Source: Nesterenkonia xinjiangensis (GTDB lineage Bacteria; Actinomycetota; Actinomycetes; Actinomycetales; Micrococcaceae). Taken from it: DNA of 64,000 nt. Shown in pieces: positions 49,405 through 59,252 of the stretch. Where the stretch lies: positions 1,488,001 to 1,552,000 of the forward strand of contig NZ_JACCFY010000001.1 in assembly GCF_013410745.1 (NCBI RefSeq), read 5' to 3'. The position numbers were made by a program, and so were the translations under genes. The notes beneath the pieces were generated by a model that did no database searches, was not told where the DNA came from, and was given only the letters and a program-made list of their open reading frames with translations. Numbering within the stretch: the first letter of the stretch is position 1; every line of letters starts with the position of its first letter.

Positions 49405-50340
49405 TCAGGCGTCCCTGCGGCGGAAAAGGAGCCCACCCGTCACAGTCATGACCGCCGTCCAGGCACCCATCCCCACACCGGCGGCGAAAGAGCCGATCCC
49501 ATCCCTGGGGGCCGGGCCCGGGACGGTGAAACTGCTCATCAGGTTCGCGAACTGCCACCGGTAGAGCGTCATGACCAGCTCGGACTCCTCGGTGACTGAC
49601 ACCAGGATCTCCATGGCCATAGGCAGCACGAACAGCAGGATCGCCAACGTGACGATCCCTCCGGCAGTGCTGCGCAGGATGGCACCGAGTCCGAAGCCGA
49701 CCAGACCGGCCAGAACCACTCCCGCCCAATGGGTGATGAGCCGGTGCCAGGTCTCGGTAGCTGTGAAGTCCGGGGTGAGACCGTGCGTGGCCGCAAAGGG
49801 CAGCGCGACCGCGAGGATCCCGACGATCATCAGTGCGGCCAGTACCCCCAGCACCACGGCGGTGGCCAGCACCTTGGCGGTGTAGAGCACCACCCGGCGG
49901 GGCACCGCAGAGAGCGACGAGCGGACTGATCCGCTGGCGTGCTCGGAGGTGATAGCGATGACCCCGATGCAGCCGAGGAGGATGACGGCGAAGTAGAGGC
50001 CGGTCAGCGGGGTCTCGAGGGCCATGTCCCGCAACGCCGCCTCGGGCAGTCCCGCCCCGGGGTCCTCCTGCTGCCAGCTGATCATGCTGTTCAGGCTGGC
50101 CCCGGACATCCAGGCGAAGAGCAGCACCAGCACCAGAGCGCTGGCGCCGAGCCACCAGGTGGCGCGCAGCCAGACGAGCTTCTGCAGTTCGGAGCGCAGC
50201 ACACGAAGGAAGCTCAGTCCGCTCAAGGCAGGGTCGACCTCGAACCGGCGCTGCGGCTCCGTGGCGGTGCAGGTGTTGAGGCGTAGCCCCGGCGCACCCT
50301 GGGGATGGCCGACGCTCGAGGATCCAGTCTCAGGAGTCAT
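49405..50340 (-). CDS. ABC-2 type exporter permease
   Basis: Membrane protein of 311 residues with six helices, preceded by a cytoplasmic helix FLRVLRSELQKLVWLRATWW typical of ABC-2 permeases. The ATG at 50340 lies directly after the stop of the ATPase gene. Works with the ATPase encoded at 50342-51334. The substrate is unknown; regulation by the adjacent two-component system is likely. Confidence 0.82.
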   Translation of the reverse strand: MTPETGSSSVGHPQGAPGLRLNTCTATEPQRRFEVDPALSGLSFLRVLRSELQKLVWLRATWWLGASALVLVLLFAWMSGASLNSMISWQQEDPGAGLPEAALRDMALETPLTGLYFAVILLGCIGVIAITSEHASGSVRSSLSAVPRRVVLYTAKVLATAVVLGVLAALMIVGILAVALPFAATHGLTPDFTATETWHRLITHWAGVVLAGLVGFGLGAILRSTAGGIVTLAILLFVLPMAMEILVSVTEESELVMTLYRWQFANLMSSFTVPGPAPRDGIGSFAAGVGMGAWTAVMTVTGGLLFRRRDA

Positions 50341-50341
50341 G

Positions 50342-51334
50342 TCAGCGCCCTTCTTCATGGTCGGGTCCGTTCGGCGCCTCGTCAGGGGCGAGGGAGACCG
50401 TGCCGGAGCTCTCGAGCCCGCCGCTGCGGTGCTCGACGGCGTCATGTGTGAGTCGCAGGTAGGAATCCTCCAGCGAGCTCCGCAGCGGCGTGAGCTCGTG
50501 CAGCACCGCTCCGATGTCACGGGCGCGGCGACCGATGCTGCGGGCGTCGAGCCCGGTGACCTCGAACGTCTCGGCATCGTGCCCGGTGACCGTGACCTCG
50601 GCAGCCGAGAGGGAGTTCATCAGATCAGCGGCGTCTTCGGTGCGCACCAGTACGCGGGACTCCCCTGCGGCGTCGATGAAGTCCTGCAGGGGCATATCGG
50701 CCAGGATCCGGCCGCGGCCGAGCACGATCAGGTGGTCGGCGGTCTGGGCCATCTCAGACATCAGGTGGGAGGAGAGCAGCACGGTGCGGCCCTCGGCGGC
50801 GAGCTGACGGGTCAGCTGCCGCACCCAACGGACGCCCTCAGGGTCTAGGCCGTTGACCGGTTCGTCGAGGATCAGTGTGGCGGGATCGCCGAGCAGCGCG
50901 GCGGCGATGCCGAGCCGCTGATTCATACCCAGCGAGTAGCTCTTGACGCGGCGGCCGTCAACTGAGCCCAGCCCGGTCATCTCGATCACCTCGTCCACAC
51001 GCTGTCGGCCGATGCCGTGGGTGCTGGCGAGGAGGCGCAGGTGCTGCCGCCCCGTGCGTCCGGGATGGGTGGCGCCGGCGTCGAGCACAGCCCCGGCCTG
51101 ACGCAGCGGCGCATCATGCTGGGAGAAAGGGAGACCGTTGACGGTGATCGTCCCGGAGGTGGGGCGGTCCAGGCCCATGGCCAGGCGCATGGTGGTGGAC
51201 TTCCCGGCCCCGTTGGGGCCGAGAAATCCGGTGACCTTCCCGGGCGCAGCAGTGAAGCTGATGCCGTCTACGGCGGTCCGGGGCCGGGAGGTGCCGGCGC
51301 CGTAGGTCTTGCTCAGGTCCTCGGCGGTGATCAT
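50342..51334 (-). CDS. ABC transporter ATPase, CcmA/DrrA-like
   Basis: ATPase of 330 residues. Walker A GPNGAGKST, signature SLGMNQRLGIAAALL, Walker B LILDEPVNGLDP and H-loop SSHLMSEM are present. The C-terminal extension fits drug-exporter ATPases. The ATG at 51334 has GGAGAG seven bases upstream; an ATG 48 bases earlier has no site. Confidence 0.88.
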   Translation of the reverse strand: MITAEDLSKTYGAGTSRPRTAVDGISFTAAPGKVTGFLGPNGAGKSTTMRLAMGLDRPTSGTITVNGLPFSQHDAPLRQAGAVLDAGATHPGRTGRQHLRLLASTHGIGRQRVDEVIEMTGLGSVDGRRVKSYSLGMNQRLGIAAALLGDPATLILDEPVNGLDPEGVRWVRQLTRQLAAEGRTVLLSSHLMSEMAQTADHLIVLGRGRILADMPLQDFIDAAGESRVLVRTEDAADLMNSLSAAEVTVTGHDAETFEVTGLDARSIGRRARDIGAVLHELTPLRSSLEDSYLRLTHDAVEHRSGGLESSGTVSLAPDEAPNGPDHEEGR

Positions 51335-51447
51335 GACTCTCCGATCGGTGGTCGCGATGCCCCTCACTCTACGGAGCCGCAACCGCGCGACGCTTCAGCC
51401 TGTGGGGGTATCTTGTGTCGACCAGATCGTCGACCAGACCCGTCACG

Positions 51448-52368
51448 TCATCCTTCAGAAGGAGACGCGGCCCGCTCCTCTGCCATCCTGACGATGGCCC
51501 CGTCGCGAGGCATGCCGTCGAGCGCCGTGCTCCCAGGCTCCTGAGCGTGCTTCCTCCAGGACGGGTCCAGGCCCTCCACCTGACATCCCTGCCACGTCAT
51601 GGGCAGCCCGGCAGCAGCGTCGAAGGAGGCCCGGTCCATGAGGTGCACGTGCAGATGCGGCTCGGTGGAGTTGCCCGTGTTCCCGACCGCGGCGATGACC
51701 TGGCCCGCCACGACTTCCTCTCCCACCTGGACACGTGACGAGCCACGCTTCAGGTGGGCGTAGGCGGCGAAGGTGCCGTCATGGTGACTGATCACGATGC
51801 GATTTCCGATCACGGCACGGTATCCACCGACCAGCTCACGGAGGAACCCACCCAGGAGGATCATCCACAGCATGGCCTGCCAGGTGTTGCGGGCACGCTG
51901 GTCCCGCTGCCCGTCCGACGTCTGGACCACGACTCCCTGCGCCACAGCGTGGACCGGCTCCCCGAAGCACGTGAAGTCTTCCGGACGGCTCCCTCGCAGA
52001 GCCCGTCGGGGCGACACTGGGTTCTGCGGTGTGACCATGTCCGGTCCCACTGTGGGATGGGAGAGGTCCACCGCGTAGCGCTGCCCCCGGGTCGTCGTCC
52101 CGTGGCTCGGGACCTTCTGCCCGGGGCTGTTGTGGACCATCCATCTGCCCCGGACCGGAGCGTCGACGATCAACGGCTCCTGGGACTCGGTGGCGGGCGC
52201 CACCCTGTACAGCAGATAGGCCAGCAGGATCCAGGCGATGACACCGAGAACCCACCACAGCCCGCTGGGTGGCGTGATGATCCCTGTCAGATCCGCAGCG
52301 ATCACCAGGACACCCAGACACATCATCACTCGCCACAGTGCCCGCAAGCGGGCCACGATCCTCAGCAC
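51448..52368 (-). CDS. Membrane-anchored M23 (LytM-type) peptidase-like protein
   Basis: Protein of 306 residues with two N-terminal helices (about 15-60) and an extracellular peptidase domain. The M23 metal motifs are partly visible: HGTTTRGQRYAVD with its H and D, GNRIVISHHDG and HLHVHL near 250. A GTG start at 52368 gives GGGAGG six bases upstream (an alternative GTG is two codons earlier). It could cleave peptidoglycan or, as last gene of the RiPP cluster, process an exported peptide; neither is proven. Confidence 0.75.
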   Translation of the reverse strand: MLRIVARLRALWRVMMCLGVLVIAADLTGIITPPSGLWWVLGVIAWILLAYLLYRVAPATESQEPLIVDAPVRGRWMVHNSPGQKVPSHGTTTRGQRYAVDLSHPTVGPDMVTPQNPVSPRRALRGSRPEDFTCFGEPVHAVAQGVVVQTSDGQRDQRARNTWQAMLWMILLGGFLRELVGGYRAVIGNRIVISHHDGTFAAYAHLKRGSSRVQVGEEVVAGQVIAAVGNTGNSTEPHLHVHLMDRASFDAAAGLPMTWQGCQVEGLDPSWRKHAQEPGSTALDGMPRDGAIVRMAEERAASPSEG

Positions 52369-52457
52369 TGCCACCCTCCCATGGTCTCTTCCCCAGCATC
52401 ACAGGCCGCACAGCGCGGATGCCTGCTCCTCGACTCCCCGCATGGCCGAGTTCCTGG

Positions 52458-53300
52458 TCAGGAGGGCCAGGCGCCTGAGGAGCTCTGCATCATCGTGTGC
52501 AGGCTGCACACCCTGCCGTCTGACGCGAGACGTCCGACATCGAAGACAGCGAGCGTCGGCCCGCCTCCCCGCCTCCGCTCCGGAGTCATCGTGTAGCGTG
52601 CGGCGAAACGCCGACCCTGACGCAGGACGTCGTGGACCTCCACGGAATGACTGAGCCCCTTCTTGCGGGCCCGTCTGATCGCCGCCACCATGTCAGAGCG
52701 GTGTTTGAGGGTCCTGTTGATCCTGACGTCGGCACCGGGCGTGTGGAACGTCTCGAAGACGTCGTCGGCAGCGACCGATTCGTCCGAGACGAGCCGGTTG
52801 TACTCGTGCAGATACGTGGCGATGTCGTCCCCGGGTGTGCCCGGCAGGGCGTTCAGCGGAGCATCAGCCACCGCACCCTCCACCTCCACCATAGGATCCC
52901 GCGGCTCACCCCAGATGTAGCCGCTGCGTGAGACAGATGCCGAACCGGAGATGCGACCGTCATCTCCGAGCCGATGAAACTCGATGTGCTCGGTCTCCAT
53001 GCGCAACTCCCAGAGGACCCCGGAGAGAATCGCGTATCGGACGGCCAGCCGGTCTCCTTCGACCACCGCATCACGGATCTGCAGGACGTACGGAGACTCT
53101 CGAAGTCGCCATTGACGCAGCTGCTTGACTCGCCGGGCGCGCGCGATCGGCTTCTGATTCATGACATGCACAGCATCCGGTGTGTGACAGCTGTCCCAGA
53201 TATCCTCGACCGGCTCCGATCCGTCGAAGCTCCTGTCGATGAACCAACGCACGAATCCGGCGGGATCCTGCCTCAGGATCGGGGGCTTCGCGGACTGCAT
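52458..53300 (-). CDS. Tandem NTF2-like (SnoaL-type) protein of the RiPP cluster
   Basis: Protein of 280 residues made of two similar halves, each with the strand-helix pattern of NTF2-like domains. In the first half FVRWFIDRSFD, DIWDSCHTPDAVHV and VVEGDRLAVRYAILS; in the second IATYLHEYNRLV, DVFETFHTPGADVRI and VLRQGRRFAARYTM. The spacing of the matching segments suggests internal duplication. An ATG 15 bases earlier also has a good site (53315). It lies 68 bases downstream of the exporter gene, so may belong to the cluster. Function unknown. Confidence 0.6.
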   Translation of the reverse strand: MQSAKPPILRQDPAGFVRWFIDRSFDGSEPVEDIWDSCHTPDAVHVMNQKPIARARRVKQLRQWRLRESPYVLQIRDAVVEGDRLAVRYAILSGVLWELRMETEHIEFHRLGDDGRISGSASVSRSGYIWGEPRDPMVEVEGAVADAPLNALPGTPGDDIATYLHEYNRLVSDESVAADDVFETFHTPGADVRINRTLKHRSDMVAAIRRARKKGLSHSVEVHDVLRQGRRFAARYTMTPERRRGGGPTLAVFDVGRLASDGRVCSLHTMMQSSSGAWPS

Positions 53301-53368
53301 GCTCGTCTCCTCCATCGTCGGTCTCCTCCCTACCGGTCTCCGATGCGACCGATGCCGCGGGCTGTCAC

Positions 53369-55096
53369 TCACTGGACGCCGCTGGCTTGCAGCTGCTGCT
53401 CTGCCAGCCGGCGATAGACCTCATCCGACTCCATCAGCTCTGCGTGAGTCCCGATCGCGCGCACAGCTCCTCGGTCGAGCACGATGATCCGATCGGCCCG
53501 GAGCACTGTGGAGATCCTGTGGGCGATGGTGACGACCGCACGTTGCTGGGCCGCATCGATGACCGCGTCACGGAGCGCCGCCTCGGTGTCACTGTCGAGG
53601 TGGGCAGTCACCTCATCGAGGAGCACCACCTCAGGCTGCTGCAGGAGGGTGCGGGCGATGGCCAGACGCTGCCGCTGCCCGCCGGAGAGGCCGAGGCCTC
53701 GTTCCCCCAGCTCCGTATCGAGCCCTTGCGGCAGAGACTCGACGAAGTCCTTGAGGCTGGACAGCCGCAGGACCTCCTCGATCTGCCGGTCTTCCGCTTC
53801 CGGACGAGCATAGACCAGGTTCTCTCGGATGGTCCCGCGCAGCAGAGGAGCGTCCTGCTCCACATAGCCGACCTTGGTCCTGAGCTGATCCAAGGACATG
53901 TCGGCGACATCGACGCCGCTCACGCTCACCGCGCCCCGGTCAGCGCGATGGAATCGTTCGACTAGCTGGAAGAGACTCGTCTTCCCGGCGCCGGACGGTC
54001 CGACGATGGCGGTGAGCCCTGTGCGAGGCACGGAGAAGGTCACATCGCGAAGTGCTGGCGACCCGTCCTCGTAGGAGAACCACACACTCTCGAACGCGAC
54101 CGCTGCGTCCACCATCTCGACACGGGTGCTGTCCTCAGCTGCTCCGGCTGCCTGCGGTTCTTCCTCCTGCGGCAGCTCGGCCAGCTCCGTGATGCGCTGG
54201 ACTGCGGCCCGGCCCTGTTGGATCTGCCCCAGCGCCAGGAAGAGCATCACCAGCGGGGACACCAGGTAGAAGAGGTACATGACGAATGCGGTCAGATCGG
54301 CTGCGTGCAGCTCACCGGTCGTCACACGGGCCATCCCCCACGCGATGACGACCGCCAGCGAGAGCTGGGTGCCTACGTTCATCGCGGGCTGCAGCAGCGC
54401 TCCGAGAGCGGTCACGCGGATCCCGCTCTGACGAGCTGAGTCCGCCAGACCTTCGAGGCGCTCTGTCTCACGCGCCTCGGCCCGGGATGCCTTCACCGTG
54501 GTGATGGCCCCGAGCACGCGCTGCAGGCCCGACCCGAAGGCACTGGTGTCCGTTCGGTTGACCAGGGACGCGACCCTCACCTGACGAGCGATCACCAACG
54601 AGACGAGGCTGGCTGCTCCGAGGCAGATGAGGGTCGCCACCAGCAGCTGCCAGTCGATCCACGCCATGAAGATGACACCGCCCACCACCATGAAGAGGGA
54701 ACTCACCAGCTGGGCGAGTGCTTGGGTGATCACCATGCACGCCAAGGTGGTGTCACCGACCATGCGGGTGAAGATGTCTCCGGACTCCATCCGTTGGAAG
54801 GCGGCGACCCTGCTGCGCAGCAGACGCCCCGCCAGAAGGTTCCGCACATCGAACACGATGTTTTCGCCGGCGCGTCCGATGAGGTAAGCGTTCGCCGCCG
54901 ACATGGCGGCATCGAGGATGAACAGGCCGACGATCCAGAGGATGGGCCCGGAGATGGAGTCCCCCTCCGCAACGGCCCTGATGAGGATGCCGACGAACAG
55001 CGGCTGGGCGAGGGAGGCGGCCGCACCCACGAGTCCGGCGGCGATGCCTGCGAGGAGGAGGGCCCGGTGTCCGGAGATGATCCGCACAAGGTTCAT
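53369..55096 (-). CDS. ABC exporter with fused permease and ATPase
   Basis: Half-transporter of 575 residues. Six helices (about 1-310, exporter fold) and an ATPase domain with Walker A VGPSGAGKTS, signature LSGGQRQRLAIART, Walker B VVLLDEVTAHLD and H-loop IAHRISTV. No peptidase C39 domain is fused to its N-terminus. It overlaps the methyltransferase gene by four bases (ATGA), so it is probably the exporter of the modified peptide. LinT/CypT of linaridins is the closest functional analogue by position. Confidence 0.85.
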   Translation of the reverse strand: MNLVRIISGHRALLLAGIAAGLVGAAASLAQPLFVGILIRAVAEGDSISGPILWIVGLFILDAAMSAANAYLIGRAGENIVFDVRNLLAGRLLRSRVAAFQRMESGDIFTRMVGDTTLACMVITQALAQLVSSLFMVVGGVIFMAWIDWQLLVATLICLGAASLVSLVIARQVRVASLVNRTDTSAFGSGLQRVLGAITTVKASRAEARETERLEGLADSARQSGIRVTALGALLQPAMNVGTQLSLAVVIAWGMARVTTGELHAADLTAFVMYLFYLVSPLVMLFLALGQIQQGRAAVQRITELAELPQEEEPQAAGAAEDSTRVEMVDAAVAFESVWFSYEDGSPALRDVTFSVPRTGLTAIVGPSGAGKTSLFQLVERFHRADRGAVSVSGVDVADMSLDQLRTKVGYVEQDAPLLRGTIRENLVYARPEAEDRQIEEVLRLSSLKDFVESLPQGLDTELGERGLGLSGGQRQRLAIARTLLQQPEVVLLDEVTAHLDSDTEAALRDAVIDAAQQRAVVTIAHRISTVLRADRIIVLDRGAVRAIGTHAELMESDEVYRRLAEQQLQASGVQ

Positions 55097-55845
55097 GACG
55101 GCTTGCGGTACGTCGCGATGAACATCAGGGATTGCTCCGCATAGGGACTGCGAAGTGGGTCAGACCACGAACCGTCCGGCTCCAGGCCAGCGAGGTGCGC
55201 ATAGGCGTCGGTGTCCTCGGGCGTGATCAGCCGGAGGACCTCGGTGCCGATCCTATGCGTTCCATCCGCTTCGAACCAGATCTGCGAACAGTGCCAGAGA
55301 TCATCGGGCAGCAGGGTCGCGTGAGTCTGGAGACCTGTGTTGCGCTCCGGGTAGGGGAAGAAGAGCGTCGTCCTCGTCTTTCCTTCATGCAGGCCCACAC
55401 ATCCCGGACGGTTGTGTGCTTCGAGGACGAGACGGCCACCAGGAATCAGCAGGTCGGCGGCGCGCTGGACCGCCTGCTGCTGCTCTTCCCGAGACAGCAC
55501 CAGGGACAGTGCCGAGCACACGATGTAGATGAGACCGAATCGCCGATGGTCGGTGTAGGTGCGCATGTCCCCGTAGCGGGGGACCACGAGATCCTCCCCG
55601 CACTCCTCTTGCAGGGCGTCGAGCATCAGGCTGGAGCTGTCAACGCCCACGACCTGCCCGACCCGTCTGGCCAGAGGGACCGCGATGCGCCCGGTGCCGA
55701 CACCGAGCTCAAGCGTTCCACTGGCAGGATCTGGGTGCTGGCCCGCGAGGAACTCCGCCAGCACCTCCGCCGACTCGTCCTTGCGGAAGACCCGGTCGTA
55801 CCAGCCCTCGAACTGTTCGGCGTAGCCTGTGTCCTGCACAGTCAT
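55093..55845 (-). CDS. SAM-dependent methyltransferase of the RiPP cluster
   Basis: Class I methyltransferase of 250 residues with motif I LELGVGTGRIAVPL (45-58), acidic loop GVDSSS and motif IV-like LIYIVCSALSLVLS. The N-terminal segment GYAEQFEGWYDRVFRKDE resembles small-molecule and peptide methylases. By analogy with CypM in cypemycin, which dimethylates the N-terminal Ala of the core, it could methylate the predicted Ala-Thr-Pro amino terminus of the two cores. AAAGGA upstream; overlaps the exporter. Confidence 0.75.
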   Translation of the reverse strand: MTVQDTGYAEQFEGWYDRVFRKDESAEVLAEFLAGQHPDPASGTLELGVGTGRIAVPLARRVGQVVGVDSSSLMLDALQEECGEDLVVPRYGDMRTYTDHRRFGLIYIVCSALSLVLSREEQQQAVQRAADLLIPGGRLVLEAHNRPGCVGLHEGKTRTTLFFPYPERNTGLQTHATLLPDDLWHCSQIWFEADGTHRIGTEVLRLITPEDTDAYAHLAGLEPDGSWSDPLRSPYAEQSLMFIATYRKPS

Positions 55846-55894
55846 CGAGTCTCGTCCTTTCTCCGTCGTATTGATCGGGCATGGTGGGGCGTCC

Positions 55895-56482
55895 TCAGGC
55901 GACGGGGACGAGTCTGCGTTCATCAGCGCCGTCCATTCCCACATAGGGCGAGACGAAGAGGATCTCAGGCTCCTCGTCAGGGTCATGGCCGCTCGCCCGC
56001 ACCATGGATATCTGGAATCCCTTGATGCGGCCGAGGTCATCGGACCTCTCGGCGATCTCTCGGCGGATGAAGTTCACCAGCAGGCGGTAGGACGCGGTGA
56101 CCTTGATGACCTCGAAACCCTTGTCCATCCTCTGGAGGATCTCGCTGCACACGTCGAACACCGCCTTCTCGCCCCTGCGCGTGGCGAACCAGAACGCCTG
56201 GTGCATCCGTCGATCAGCGATGAGCTCGATGCTCTGCCACCTCGACGTCTCACCGTCGACGTCCAGCGTCCGGAAGAGGTAGTGATAGTCGTGGGTCGCC
56301 GGGTTGGGTGCGAAGAACTTCCAGTTGGGCAGCACGGAGAAGTGGTCTCGGAGCTGGAGCCGATTGAAGACGGGATTGGGATGCTGGGTCGCGACGGTGG
56401 CGACGAGAAGGGCGGAACCCGCGATCCGCGCTGCCGCACCACGCCCTGTGAACAGCGCCCTGCACTGAGCTGCGACGTTCAT
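55895..56482 (-). CDS. SdpA-like/LinL-like small protein
   Basis: Protein of 195 residues with one N-terminal hydrophobic helix, then a soluble domain. The segment LRDHFSVLPNWKFFAPNPATH is like the W-x-F-F-x-NP segment of SdpA in the Bacillus SDP toxin system; in linaridin clusters a small membrane-linked protein (LinL) accompanies the hydrolase fusion. Its start overlaps the stop of the fusion gene by four bases (ATGA), so it probably acts with that protein. Function is inferred only by context. Confidence 0.5.
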   Translation of the reverse strand: MNVAAQCRALFTGRGAAARIAGSALLVATVATQHPNPVFNRLQLRDHFSVLPNWKFFAPNPATHDYHYLFRTLDVDGETSRWQSIELIADRRMHQAFWFATRRGEKAVFDVCSEILQRMDKGFEVIKVTASYRLLVNFIRREIAERSDDLGRIKGFQISMVRASGHDPDEEPEILFVSPYVGMDGADERRLVPVA

Positions 56483-58407
56483 CCGAGCACCTCGACCTTC
56501 CTCGTGTCATGGCCATCGGTCCGTGCGAGATCCACATCCGAATCTGCCGACGGCTCCATGAGATCAACGTGTCGGGAGCGCTGGAGATGGGCGATGATGA
56601 CGTCTGCGACAAGGTGCGCGTGCCGCGCATTGGTCAACATGCTGTCGTGGTCCGTTCCGGGGATGACGCGCAGCTCACTGGACGGATCATCATGGGTCCT
56701 CACCAACTCCTCGTACATCGCCAGCTGCTCGGCATCCTGATCGACCGTATTCTGGGCTGCGACGACGACACCGCACGCAGCGATGGGGTCGACGTCGGCG
56801 GAGTGACTGCGGAAGTCCTTCTCCACCGCACGCCACTCTCGGGATGCCGCACTCCACAACCGAGCATCGGAGTATTGGGCGAAGACCTTGTCACGATACG
56901 CCGGCGGGAGACTGTCCAGCCACCGGGGTCGGCTCATCAGGATCCCCGTTCCCAGGCGCAGCGCCCAGGTCGCCGTCGTGAGCGCACCGTGGAGGTTCCG
57001 CGCGCCCAGGTCCTGTGCTTCTGAGCGTTGGAGCTCAGCAGGATGGGACGGGTCCAGGTACACCAGAGCCTCGAGAGTCTCGGGATCCATCTCGGAGGCA
57101 GCGCGCCGGATGATCTCACCACCCAACGAATGCCCCACCAGGGCGACCTTCCGACCGCTTGGGGCCGTCACCGCATGGCAGAGGTCGAGGAGGTCGTCCA
57201 CTGACTCCTGAAGCGTGTAGTCGGCACGGGATCTCCGCCGACTGCCTGCATACCCGGCTCGCGCATAGACGATCAGACCGCAGTCCGTCTCTGTGACGAT
57301 CTTCTCGCTGATCCAGGCGAAGTGTTCGGCGGTCGCGGCAAGACCCGCGACGAAGATCACGATGGGGGACTCTCCATCAGGCGTGCCTCCAGACTCGAAC
57401 TGGAGCTCGTTGCCGTGGCGCGTGGTGATCCTGCGGGATGTCCCCCATCCCTGAAGCGTCTTGAGCCGCTTCTGCACGGCCACTGTCCCGGCGACAGCCG
57501 CGGAGACCCCTAGGGCCACCAGGGCTGCGGGGACCATGCGGTCGTCCCTGCCAGCGATGACGGGATGGGACCTGGGAGTCGAGGTATAGGCGACGAAGGG
57601 ATGCATCGAGGGGAATGCCGTCATGAACCGTCCCAGTCCCATGACGAAGCCGTTGGCGACGTGGAAGGATGCCGCAGAGGCCAAGAACGGTCGCGCAAAC
57701 CGTCCACCTGCCACGTAGACGAGGGGAAACAGACACTCCATGGCGAGAACCCCGTGCTGGATCATCGTGGAGGCCCGCGGATGCTGCTTGGAGAATCTGT
57801 AGACCTTCTCGAAGCCATAGGTCTTGGTCCGCATGACTCCAGGCAGGGCTTCGCCGCTGCGCCACTTGTCACCCAGCAGCTTCACCCAGCCCGACGCGGC
57901 GTAGGAGAGGTTGGCCTGGATCGCCACATACCAGAGCAGCGCATCCTGAGTCTGGGGGGACGAGCTCAGACGAGCCGCACCCGTGGCTGACTGCACCAGA
58001 AGAGAGACCTGGTCGGACCCGTCGGTGCCGAATCGGTGTCGGGGATAGAGGATGGCGGTGATGCCGCTGAGCGCCAGGTTGCCTGCGCCGCGCCATCGAC
58101 TGTTCCCGGGCAGCATCATCGCGATGCTCACGGCCGCCCGGGTCACGTGGAGTCCCACGGTGACCCGACGGTCTCCGACCAGATCCAACACACACCGGAA
58201 CATCGGATTGTCGACTGCTTCCTCCTCCCTCATGATCTCCCAGTCATTCAGCCCACCCTTCTCAAGGTGGCGACGCTGGCTGAGGTACTCCAGGGACGAC
58301 GTCAGAGTCGTCGCGGCGACCAGGCGTTCGGAGATGCCGAGCGCACGATCACGAGATACGGGGATCGGGCTGAAGACAGCGGAGACCAGTTTCCGGGCCA
58401 GATTCAC
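56479..58407 (-). CDS. HTTM-like membrane domain fused to alpha/beta hydrolase (LinH-like)
   Basis: Protein of 642 residues. Residues 1-320 contain several helices with NLSYAASGWVKLLGDKWRSG and FHVANGFVMGLGRFMTAFPS, the conserved pattern of HTTM/SdpB-type membrane proteins related to vitamin K carboxylases. Residues 325-620 form an alpha/beta hydrolase with GHSLGGE (S427), the oxyanion loop FVAGLAATAEHF and PGTDHDSML containing the likely catalytic His. As I recall, linaridin clusters carry a membrane-hydrolase fusion (LinH) needed for modification of core residues. It overlaps the SdpA-like gene and lies downstream of the two precursor genes. Confidence 0.7.
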   Translation of the reverse strand: MNLARKLVSAVFSPIPVSRDRALGISERLVAATTLTSSLEYLSQRRHLEKGGLNDWEIMREEEAVDNPMFRCVLDLVGDRRVTVGLHVTRAAVSIAMMLPGNSRWRGAGNLALSGITAILYPRHRFGTDGSDQVSLLVQSATGAARLSSSPQTQDALLWYVAIQANLSYAASGWVKLLGDKWRSGEALPGVMRTKTYGFEKVYRFSKQHPRASTMIQHGVLAMECLFPLVYVAGGRFARPFLASAASFHVANGFVMGLGRFMTAFPSMHPFVAYTSTPRSHPVIAGRDDRMVPAALVALGVSAAVAGTVAVQKRLKTLQGWGTSRRITTRHGNELQFESGGTPDGESPIVIFVAGLAATAEHFAWISEKIVTETDCGLIVYARAGYAGSRRRSRADYTLQESVDDLLDLCHAVTAPSGRKVALVGHSLGGEIIRRAASEMDPETLEALVYLDPSHPAELQRSEAQDLGARNLHGALTTATWALRLGTGILMSRPRWLDSLPPAYRDKVFAQYSDARLWSAASREWRAVEKDFRSHSADVDPIAACGVVVAAQNTVDQDAEQLAMYEELVRTHDDPSSELRVIPGTDHDSMLTNARHAHLVADVIIAHLQRSRHVDLMEPSADSDVDLARTDGHDTRKVEVLG

Positions 58408-58443
58408 GGGGTGGTCCTTGCGGTAAAGGGGTTCGATGGAGAA

Positions 58444-58484
58444 GAGGCCTCCGGGACACAGAAGCTCTGCATCCCGGAGACCTC
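58444..58484 (-). promoter_or_regulatory. Hairpin between precursor genes and modification genes
   Basis: On the minus-strand transcript GAGGUCUCCGGGA pairs with UCCCGGAGGCCUC to give a 13-pair stem with one G-U pair and a 15-base loop. There is no long U-tract after it. It sits between the second precursor stop and the start of the fusion gene. It may act as attenuator or RNA stabiliser, keeping precursor mRNA more abundant than enzyme mRNA. Confidence 0.55.
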
Positions 58485-58537
58485 AGGACGGGCCGGCTCA
58501 TGCACAACCCAGCGTGGGACCGAATGCGTCCGGTGAG

Positions 58538-58729
58538 TCAGCCGTTGGCGCCGGCGTGCTCACGTCCCAGGTCATAGGCCTGAAGTGTGATCCACGCGTA
58601 CCCGGCAGCGCCGGCGAAGGCTGCGGGCGTCGCCATGACCGGCCCCAGCTTGGCACCGGACATGCGACTGTCCTCGGTCAATGCGGACTCGGTCTCGCTC
58701 TCCAGCTTCTCCTCAATGCGGGCGATCAT
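58538..58729 (-). CDS. Candidate RiPP precursor peptide B
   Basis: Peptide of 63 residues. A charged leader (about 1-32, many Glu, Lys, Arg) is followed by GPVMATPAAF, and a C-terminal part with aromatic and aliphatic residues (AGYAWITLQAY) and a polar tail. The octapeptide PVMATPAA is shared with the peptide at 58840-59040. If processed before Ala as in cypemycin, whose core starts Ala-Thr-Pro, the core is 31 residues with two Thr and no Cys or Ser. GAGAGG precedes the ATG. Confidence 0.65.
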   Translation of the reverse strand: MIARIEEKLESETESALTEDSRMSGAKLGPVMATPAAFAGAAGYAWITLQAYDLGREHAGANG

Positions 58730-58839
58730 GTCGTCCTCTCTGAAATCATCGTGATCCGGTTGATGAGCCTGGCGACCAGCCCGTCAGCAGGGCCTCGGAC
58801 ACATGTCCGGCACTGTGTCGACGGTCGGTCACGACCAGG

Positions 58840-59040
58840 TCAGTTGACCGTGCGGCCCACGGTGTAGGCGACGCCCACACCGGTGACTCCCGCAGCCGCG
58901 GCTCCCACGACCTTCTTCCCGGCGAGGGCCGCCACCACCGCGGCGGGTGTCGCCATGACCGGCGTCCCCTCCCGACGGAAGCCTTCGGTGAGTGATCCCA
59001 GTTCCTGCTCGTTCATGAATGCGGCGATGTTTTCTGACAT
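58840..59040 (-). CDS. Candidate RiPP precursor peptide A
   Basis: Peptide of 66 residues, first gene of the apparent cluster. Leader MSENIAAFMNEQELGSLTEG plus nine residues, then the motif GTPVMATPAA, then a hydrophobic core of 37 residues with GKKVVGAAAAG and Thr at four places (T31, T53, T60, T64) and no Cys or Ser. The hydrophobic Gly/Ala-rich core would be membrane active. GGGGAG precedes the ATG. It resembles precursor B only in the PVMATPAA motif and general layout. Confidence 0.65.
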   Translation of the reverse strand: MSENIAAFMNEQELGSLTEGFRREGTPVMATPAAVVAALAGKKVVGAAAAGVTGVGVAYTVGRTVN

Positions 59041-59123
59041 AACTCTCCCCAATCTTATTCAGCAGACTTGACATAATCGAGAGGCCACCGAACGGCCCGT
59101 CGATCACGAATGACGCTACAGAC

Positions 59124-59188
59124 GCGTTCAGTTCCCGCCAAGACTAATGCGCGTATTTTGAGGAACTCGAAAGGTTGCGTTCAGCTCC
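59124..59188. promoter_or_regulatory. Direct repeats upstream of the RiPP cluster
   Basis: GCGTTCAGTTCC at 59124-59135 and GCGTTCAGCTCC at 59177-59188 match in 11 of 12 bases and lie 53 bases apart (about five helical turns) in an AT-richer region upstream of precursor A. This spacing puts both on the same DNA face and suggests binding of a regulator. No cluster-specific regulator gene is seen. Confidence 0.45.
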
Positions 59189-59252
59189 TGTTAAGGGTGG
59201 ACGCCCGCTCCATCATGATGTCCGGCGCCTCCGCCCGGCATCGCCGCTGACC

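What the first reader, a model, noticed from the sequence alone, without database searches (positions are those of the whole stretch)
51448..59040. Linaridin-like RiPP cluster with two cysteine-free precursor peptides
Two tiny genes with the shared octapeptide PVMATPAA precede a membrane-hydrolase fusion, an SdpA/LinL-like protein, a methyltransferase and an exporter in one direction, several with overlapping starts. Cypemycin-type linaridins have cores that start Ala-Thr-Pro, are N-dimethylated and require a hydrolase fusion plus LinL (from memory). The absence of Cys in the cores and of a decarboxylase gene would put this outside the AviCys group. Two precursors of different sequence in one locus would be unusual.
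Basis: partly seen in the sequence, partly recalled or inferred. Interest (0 to 1): 0.9.

Follow-up and report, generated by a model that had tools for sequence, protein, structure and literature searches.

The report
Two-precursor linaridin-type peptide gene cluster
A Nesterenkonia genome carries an acquired set of eight genes that most likely makes two different small modified peptides, related to antibiotics called linaridins but on a separate branch where two or more peptide genes per cluster are common.

Summary
On the minus strand lie two precursor genes (alpha 58840-59040, beta 58538-58729), a membrane/hydrolase fusion (LinH), LinL, a methyltransferase and an ABC exporter, then SnoaL-like and M23-peptidase genes. 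LinH and LinL are homologous to those of a grisemycin-type, a cypemycin-like and a legonaridin-type locus compared here; both precursors carry the linaridin motif PxxxTP. The genes fill a 7.8 kb, lower-GC insert (51418-59250) in a block that is uninterrupted in the 14 relatives' loci fetched; 2 of 30 genomes of the genus have LinL. The locus fits neither type A (no decarboxylase, no Cys tail) nor type B (LinH fused, no SDR gene); its LinL lies on a third branch. Predicted products are two N-dimethylated peptides with dehydrated Thr; this is unproven. Whether they act as a pair is open: my co-divergence test became weak once locus effects were removed. Two key papers (Georgiou 2020; Ma and Zhang 2020) could not be read, so novelty is uncertain.

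The parts
51418..59250 (.). Acquired insert between the ABC ATPase gene and the DUF418 gene
   Evidence: Homology to relative L137 ends at 51417 and resumes at 59251; GC 65.1% (51400-59100) against 70.0% and 69.1% in the flanks; the flanking genes lie together in 14 of 14 relatives' loci fetched
58840..59040 (-). Alpha precursor, 66 aa; predicted core ATPAAVVAALAGKKVVGAAAAGVTGVGVAYTVGRTVN
   Evidence: ORF and SD-like stretch; weak NCBIfam CypA hit E 0.0032, below cut-off; dN/dS 0.24; core border inferred from PxxxTP
58538..58729 (-). Beta precursor, 63 aa; predicted core ATPAAFAGAAGYAWITLQAYDLGREHAGANG
   Evidence: ORF and SD-like stretch; dN/dS 0.20; no NCBIfam or Pfam hit
56479..58407 (-). 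LinH: HTTM-type membrane domain fused to an alpha/beta hydrolase
   Evidence: Pfam hydrolase; full-length homologs; HTTM by hhalign 97.9%; match to L037, L133, L135
55895..56482 (-). LinL
   Evidence: Match to LinL of L037, L133, L135; weak DUF5819 hit E 0.0025, below cut-off; present in 76 of 79 related loci
55093..55845 (-). Methyltransferase, predicted N-terminal dimethylation
   Evidence: Methyltransf_25; daptide methyltransferase model 1e-18, below cut-off; 57% to that of L133
53369..55096 (-). ABC exporter (membrane and ATPase domains)
   Evidence: Pfam; 54% to that of L133
52458..53315 (-). SnoaL-like protein with two SnoaL_2 stretches; start not certain
   Evidence: Pfam; found in 12 of 79 related loci; most diverged gene of the insert, 46% to L044, dN/dS 0.36
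51448..52374 (-). M23 peptidase with N-terminal hydrophobic stretches (by eye)
   Evidence: Pfam Peptidase_M23 3.5e-19; found in 18 of 79 related loci, not all beside LinH

Best explanation
A horizontally acquired linaridin-type RiPP cluster of a third LinL/LinH branch. Two leader-core precursors (alpha, beta) are modified at the membrane by one LinH-LinL pair, which most likely dehydrates Thr, above all the invariant Thr of ATP, and may epimerise residues. The leader is removed at PVM|ATP by a protease not identified, the new N-terminal Ala is dimethylated by the methyltransferase, and both peptides leave through the ABC exporter, probably as antibacterial peptides. Shown: genes, homology, motif, conservation, insert. 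Inferred: chemistry, order of steps, cleavage point, export, activity.
For: LinH and LinL match grisemycin-type, cypemycin-like and legonaridin-type loci. LinL is present in 76 of 79 related loci and the methyltransferase in 62 of 79. PxxxTP in both precursors; in the 130 motif-bearing precursors gathered, position 2 is V in 119 (P, T and P are fixed because they define the motif). Purifying selection on the eight genes, dN/dS 0.11-0.36. Two or more precursors in 58 of 71 loci; alpha-before-beta order recovered in 38 of 42 loci with whole clades left out at 65% LinH identity. Corynaridin, made with homologous genes, is cleaved at this motif and has its Thr/Ser dehydrated (PMC9927463).
Against: No product known. 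Cores are Thr-poor: window alpha 4 Thr, beta 2 Thr, no Ser, against 8 Thr in the legonaridin-type core. The NCBIfam CypA model scores alpha below its cut-off and beta not at all. 10 of 71 loci had no precursor by HMM and 3 only one. No promoter-like site by a simple sigma-70 scan. At 60% clade removal the alpha/beta signal drops to 59 and 65 of 84, and window alpha is misplaced by both measures.
Confidence: 0.75

Rival explanations
1. Same enzymes, other chemistry: LinH/LinL here act like a DUF5819-HTTM (SdpA/SdpB-like) pair, for example epimerising or processing the peptides without dehydration, and the Thr-Pro of the motif only guides leader cleavage.
For: HTTM link by hhalign; HTTM genes of relatives sit beside DUF5819 genes (3 of 3 tested by Pfam) that LinL profiles pick up weakly (best 1.6e-7); Thr-poor cores.
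Against: LinH and LinL are closer in kind to the enzymes of loci whose products are known or expected to contain dehydrobutyrine (PMC9927463).
Confidence: 0.17
2. One active peptide plus a duplicated spare: only alpha or only beta makes a product; two genes reflect tolerated duplication.
For: Some loci have one precursor (3 of 71) or three to five (17 of 71) by HMM; co-divergence of cores is weak after removing locus effects.
Against: Both genes are under purifying selection, and alpha and beta form separable lineages in constant order in 38 of 42 loci. This rival can be true within the best explanation.
Confidence: 0.3
3. Decayed or silent island that makes nothing.
For: 2 of 30 genomes of the genus carry LinL; no promoter-like site by a simple scan.
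Against: Frames intact; dN/dS 0.11-0.36 between the two Nesterenkonia copies.
Confidence: 0.05

Closest known systems
Legonaridin-type (type B) locus of Streptomyces sp. CT34 (L133; identified by strain and precursor, published sequence not at hand)
   Same: LinL 34%, methyltransferase 57%, exporter 54%; PxxxTP precursor; no decarboxylase homolog found by tblastn
   Different: LinH split into two genes there; one plausible precursor with a Thr-rich core
Grisemycin-type and cypemycin-like (type A) loci (L135, L037)
   Same: LinH fused, LinL, methyltransferase, PxxxTP followed by Ala
   Different: One precursor ending in STICLVC, and a flavoprotein decarboxylase; methyltransferase only about 30% identical
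Two-precursor loci of Streptomyces, e.g. L050, L051, L054
   Same: Alpha, beta, LinH, LinL, methyltransferase, exporter, SnoaL-like and M23 genes
   Different: LinH 53-56% identical; M23 gene in the opposite direction and SnoaL gene farther off
Corynaridin (PMC9927463)
   Same: LinL, HTTM and hydrolase genes, PxxxTP, no decarboxylase
   Different: One precursor, split LinH, SDR gene, no methyltransferase
Daptides (details recalled)
   Same: Methyltransferase resembles the daptide model (1e-18, below cut-off)
   Different: None of the other insert genes matched a daptide model at E<=1 among the rows shown
SdpA/SdpB-type DUF5819-HTTM pairs
   Same: HTTM domain and LinL-like partner gene
   Different: No hydrolase fusion or precursor examined there; sequence link of LinL is weak

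Membership tests
Linaridin (family level) | LinL homolog | tested here: met
   E 9e-13 to 2e-20 against type A and B reference loci L135 and L133; 9e-10 to L037
Linaridin (family level) | LinH, or its two halves | tested here: met
   Fused LinH, E 8.7e-24 (L037), 1.5e-27 (L135); HTTM half 1.6e-31 and hydrolase half 1e-10 (L133)
Linaridin (family level) | Precursor with PxxxTP cleavage motif | tested here: met
   PVMATP in both precursors
Linaridin (family level) | Dehydrated residues (dehydrobutyrine) in the product | not testable with these tools
   Needs mass spectrometry
Type A linaridin | Decarboxylase gene and C-terminal Cys (AviCys) | tested here: not met
   No flavoprotein among the Pfam-assigned insert genes; CypD tblastn hits only L037 and L135 among 84 loci searched, sister L044 included, the window itself not in that set; no Cys in either core
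Type B linaridin | No decarboxylase; short-chain oxidoreductase gene (as stated in PMC9927463) | tested here: not met
   No decarboxylase, but also no SDR hit among the insert's genes; LinH is fused, while L133 and L134 have it split
Daptide | Daptide methyltransferase model over its curated cut-off | tested here: not met
   67.7 bits against cut-off 175
Two-peptide bacteriocin | Both peptides needed for full activity | not testable with these tools
   Conserved alpha/beta lineages and weak co-divergence only

The most novel reading that the evidence does not exclude
A widespread third branch of linaridins makes two-peptide antibiotics: alpha and beta are old, order-conserved partners, matured together by one LinH-LinL complex that derives from an SdpA/SdpB-like (DUF5819-HTTM) pair and whose invariant HTTM lysine drives C-alpha deprotonation, giving dehydration and epimerisation.
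Probability: 0.2. Interest if true: 0.8.

Novelty: new variant of a known kind. Interest (0 to 1): 0.5.

Why it matters
In the papers I could read, no characterised linaridin comes from two precursors. If alpha and beta work together, this would be a two-peptide linaridin, with relatives in dozens of actinobacterial genomes. The Thr-poor cores are simple substrates for finding out what LinH and LinL do chemically. The link of LinL/LinH to DUF5819-HTTM pairs would tie linaridin maturation to the unexplained SdpA/SdpB step.

Tried and rejected
ABC-2 pair at 49405-51382 as cluster immunity: rejected, since it neighbours DUF418 in relatives without the cluster. GxxxG helix pairing as support for a two-peptide system: enriched in the 42 pairs (alpha 66 against 39.7 shuffled, 0 of 500 as high; beta 60 against 46.6, 7 of 500 as high), but neither window core has a GxxxG and the shuffles ignore kinship. 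Membrane-spanning cores: a 19-residue mean hydropathy of 1.6 or more is reached by 23 of 42 alpha and 26 of 42 beta cores, but the window's reach only 1.59 and 0.84. Alpha-beta co-divergence: Spearman 0.76, against means of 0.48 and 0.38 to equal-length LinH segments, and 0.69 on 18 dereplicated loci. With locus effects removed it is 0.59 on those 18, against 0.44 (alpha-LinH) and 0.40 (beta-LinH); for core residues 4-25 it is 0.38 against 0.43 and 0.19. So it is not decisive.

LinL model (pLDDT 86.9): no solved fold at E<=0.001. LinH model (pLDDT 92.1): the 50 listed matches are hydrolase folds, so the HTTM part was not tested by fold. The HTTM-domain profile found one chance-level PDB match (E 1.1); Pfam's HTTM model did not hit the window domain, only L098 at E 0.11. 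PADLOC: nothing for four proteins. L073, a fused LinH in strain CT34, has no methyltransferase, exporter or precursor hit and so is not the legonaridin-type locus.

Printed work: six searches of the held library (listings only, capped at 15 to 40 papers each) showed no two-precursor linaridin. Georgiou 2020 is not held; Ma and Zhang 2020 was seen only as a reference. Absence from print is therefore not claimed. Recalled, from no call: the names pegvadin and 'type C', the HTTM lysine as base-forming residue of vitamin K carboxylase, cypemycin's residue map, and daptide gene content.

Full report
What is there. On the minus strand of 51448-59040 are the alpha and beta precursor genes, LinH, LinL, a methyltransferase, an ABC exporter, a SnoaL-like gene with two SnoaL_2 stretches and an M23 peptidase gene. 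LinH/LinL and methyltransferase/exporter overlap by 4 bp. Each precursor has a Shine-Dalgarno-like stretch before its ATG (by eye) and the string PVMATPAA. The genome is taken to be a Nesterenkonia: contig C57 of the same-genus relative G026 has 75172 bases, the length of the record NZ_JAJUJJ010000014.1, Nesterenkonia sp. bin114, whose LinH match is also 75%.

The insert. The flanking genes encode an inositol-1-phosphate synthase and a DUF418 protein (Pfam) on one side, and an ABC ATPase and an ABC-2 permease on the other. DUF418 is found in 27 of 30 genomes of the genus at E<=1e-20 and the ATPase in 28 of 30 at E<=1e-60, the window's own genome included. Both lie together in 14 of 14 relatives' loci fetched (L137-L150). 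Against L137, homology stops at window 51417 and resumes at 59251. GC is 65.1% inside against 70.0% and 69.1% outside. A LinL profile finds 2 of 30 genomes of the genus. G026 has its cluster on contig C57 and its DUF418 and ATPase genes 166 bases apart on C25. I conclude that the cluster was acquired, and that the ABC-2 pair is not part of it.

Relation to linaridins. Window LinH and LinL match all four. The methyltransferase and exporter are closest to the legonaridin type (57% and 54%). A LinL tree of 69 rows joins types A and B (100/95) outside a 59-row branch that holds the window (99/77); the tree tool warns that the A-B join may be a long-branch artefact. The nearest row is L044 (100/99), then Streptomyces loci. 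The 59-row branch was sampled with window-like LinH, so its size is biased.

Two precursors are common here. A scan of named genomes found 96 relatives of LinH; the best 80 were kept, giving 79 loci. Of the 71 with at least 2 kb before LinH, 58 had two or more HMM hits (41 two, 15 three, 2 five), 3 one and 10 none; 52 had two or more with the exact motif. At least two of these hits, one each in L078 and L095, look spurious by eye; neither takes its locus below two. Restricted to 2.5 kb upstream, 53 of 71 have two or more. Among the 41 loci that gave no seed to the HMM, 23 have two or more, 5 one and 13 none. Some of the loci without hits have divergent precursors, as S. scabiei L053. The type A and B reference loci each showed one plausible precursor.

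Alpha and beta are separable lineages, tested on the 42 loci with exactly two motif precursors, labelled by order. Leave-one-out HMMs sort 79 of 84 cores and 81 of 84 leaders; random-label controls gave 28, 52 and 32 of 84. Leaving out whole clades at 65% LinH identity, the order is right in 38 of 42 loci by cores, 32 by leaders and 38 by whole peptides; eight controls with labels flipped per clade gave 9 to 36 of 42. At 60% the sorting falls to 59 and 65 of 84 peptides, window alpha being misplaced by both measures and window beta by leaders.

How it may work. The LinH membrane domain is related to HTTM proteins: hhalign 97.9%, E 4e-13, against 8 HTTM proteins, 6 from the genus and 2 from the order. 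Lys176 is invariant in 48 LinH rows and in 30 membrane-domain rows that include types A and B, and it aligns with the HTTM lysine. Hydrolase residues Ser427 and His587 are nearly invariant in the 48 rows. Genes beside the HTTM genes encode DUF5819 proteins (3 of 3 tested); a LinL profile picks these neighbours up at E 1.6e-7 to 0.34 in a small set, and the window LinL and the L037 LinL hit DUF5819 weakly (0.0025 and 0.00055, below cut-off). I infer common descent of LinL-LinH and such pairs. As that lysine is, from recall, the base-forming residue of vitamin K carboxylase, C-alpha deprotonation leading to dehydration and epimerisation is plausible but untested. Passages of PMC10373908 report that grmL is needed for grisemycin production and may encode an epimerase. 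Corynaridin shows that cleavage at PxxxTP and dehydration of Thr and Ser go with a related gene set (PMC9927463: abstract, introduction, first part of results, LC-MS section, discussion).

Accessory genes. SnoaL-like homologs occur in 12 and M23 homologs in 18 of 79 loci, both in 11, so neither is generally needed. Immunity, leader cleavage or helper roles are guesses.

What is new. Every family-level linaridin feature that could be tested here is met; types A and B are not. The combination of a fused LinH, a type-B-like methyltransferase and exporter, no decarboxylase and two Thr-poor precursors makes this a variant. Members of the branch may already be annotated as linaridins: passages of PMC6256446 name a linaridin cluster among those predicted for strains AC1-42T and AC1-42W (AC1-42W gave L045), and PMC8914351 names one in S. 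scabiei (L053). I did not map those clusters to the loci. Whether the branch is among the 561 clusters of Georgiou 2020 (number as cited in PMC9927463) could not be checked.

Noticed in passing
G000 contig C1:1988977-1991404 (outside the window): The same genome holds further HTTM genes; an adjacent gene is picked up weakly by the LinL profile. Possible SDP-like system, unrelated to this insert.
   Followed up: partly
L096 5650-7122: Streptomyces iakyrus locus with five precursors in a row before the methyltransferase, all ending in GSKQPS or GSKQPN.
   Followed up: no
L085, L096, L113: Within a locus the precursors share a C-terminal tail (for example THPTLPHA, GSKQPS, NVELPM) that differs between loci; gene conversion or a shared recognition tail is possible.
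   Followed up: no
L073 (Streptomyces sp. CT34): A fused LinH with LinL but no methyltransferase, exporter or precursor hit, besides the strain's legonaridin-type locus L133.
   Followed up: no
L049 and L134 (Streptomyces noursei): One genome carries both a two-precursor locus and a legonaridin-type locus; pegvadin A, recalled as from this species, could stem from either.
   Followed up: no
window 52458-53315: The SnoaL-like gene is the most diverged gene of the insert between the two Nesterenkonia copies (46% identity, dN/dS 0.36).
   Followed up: no
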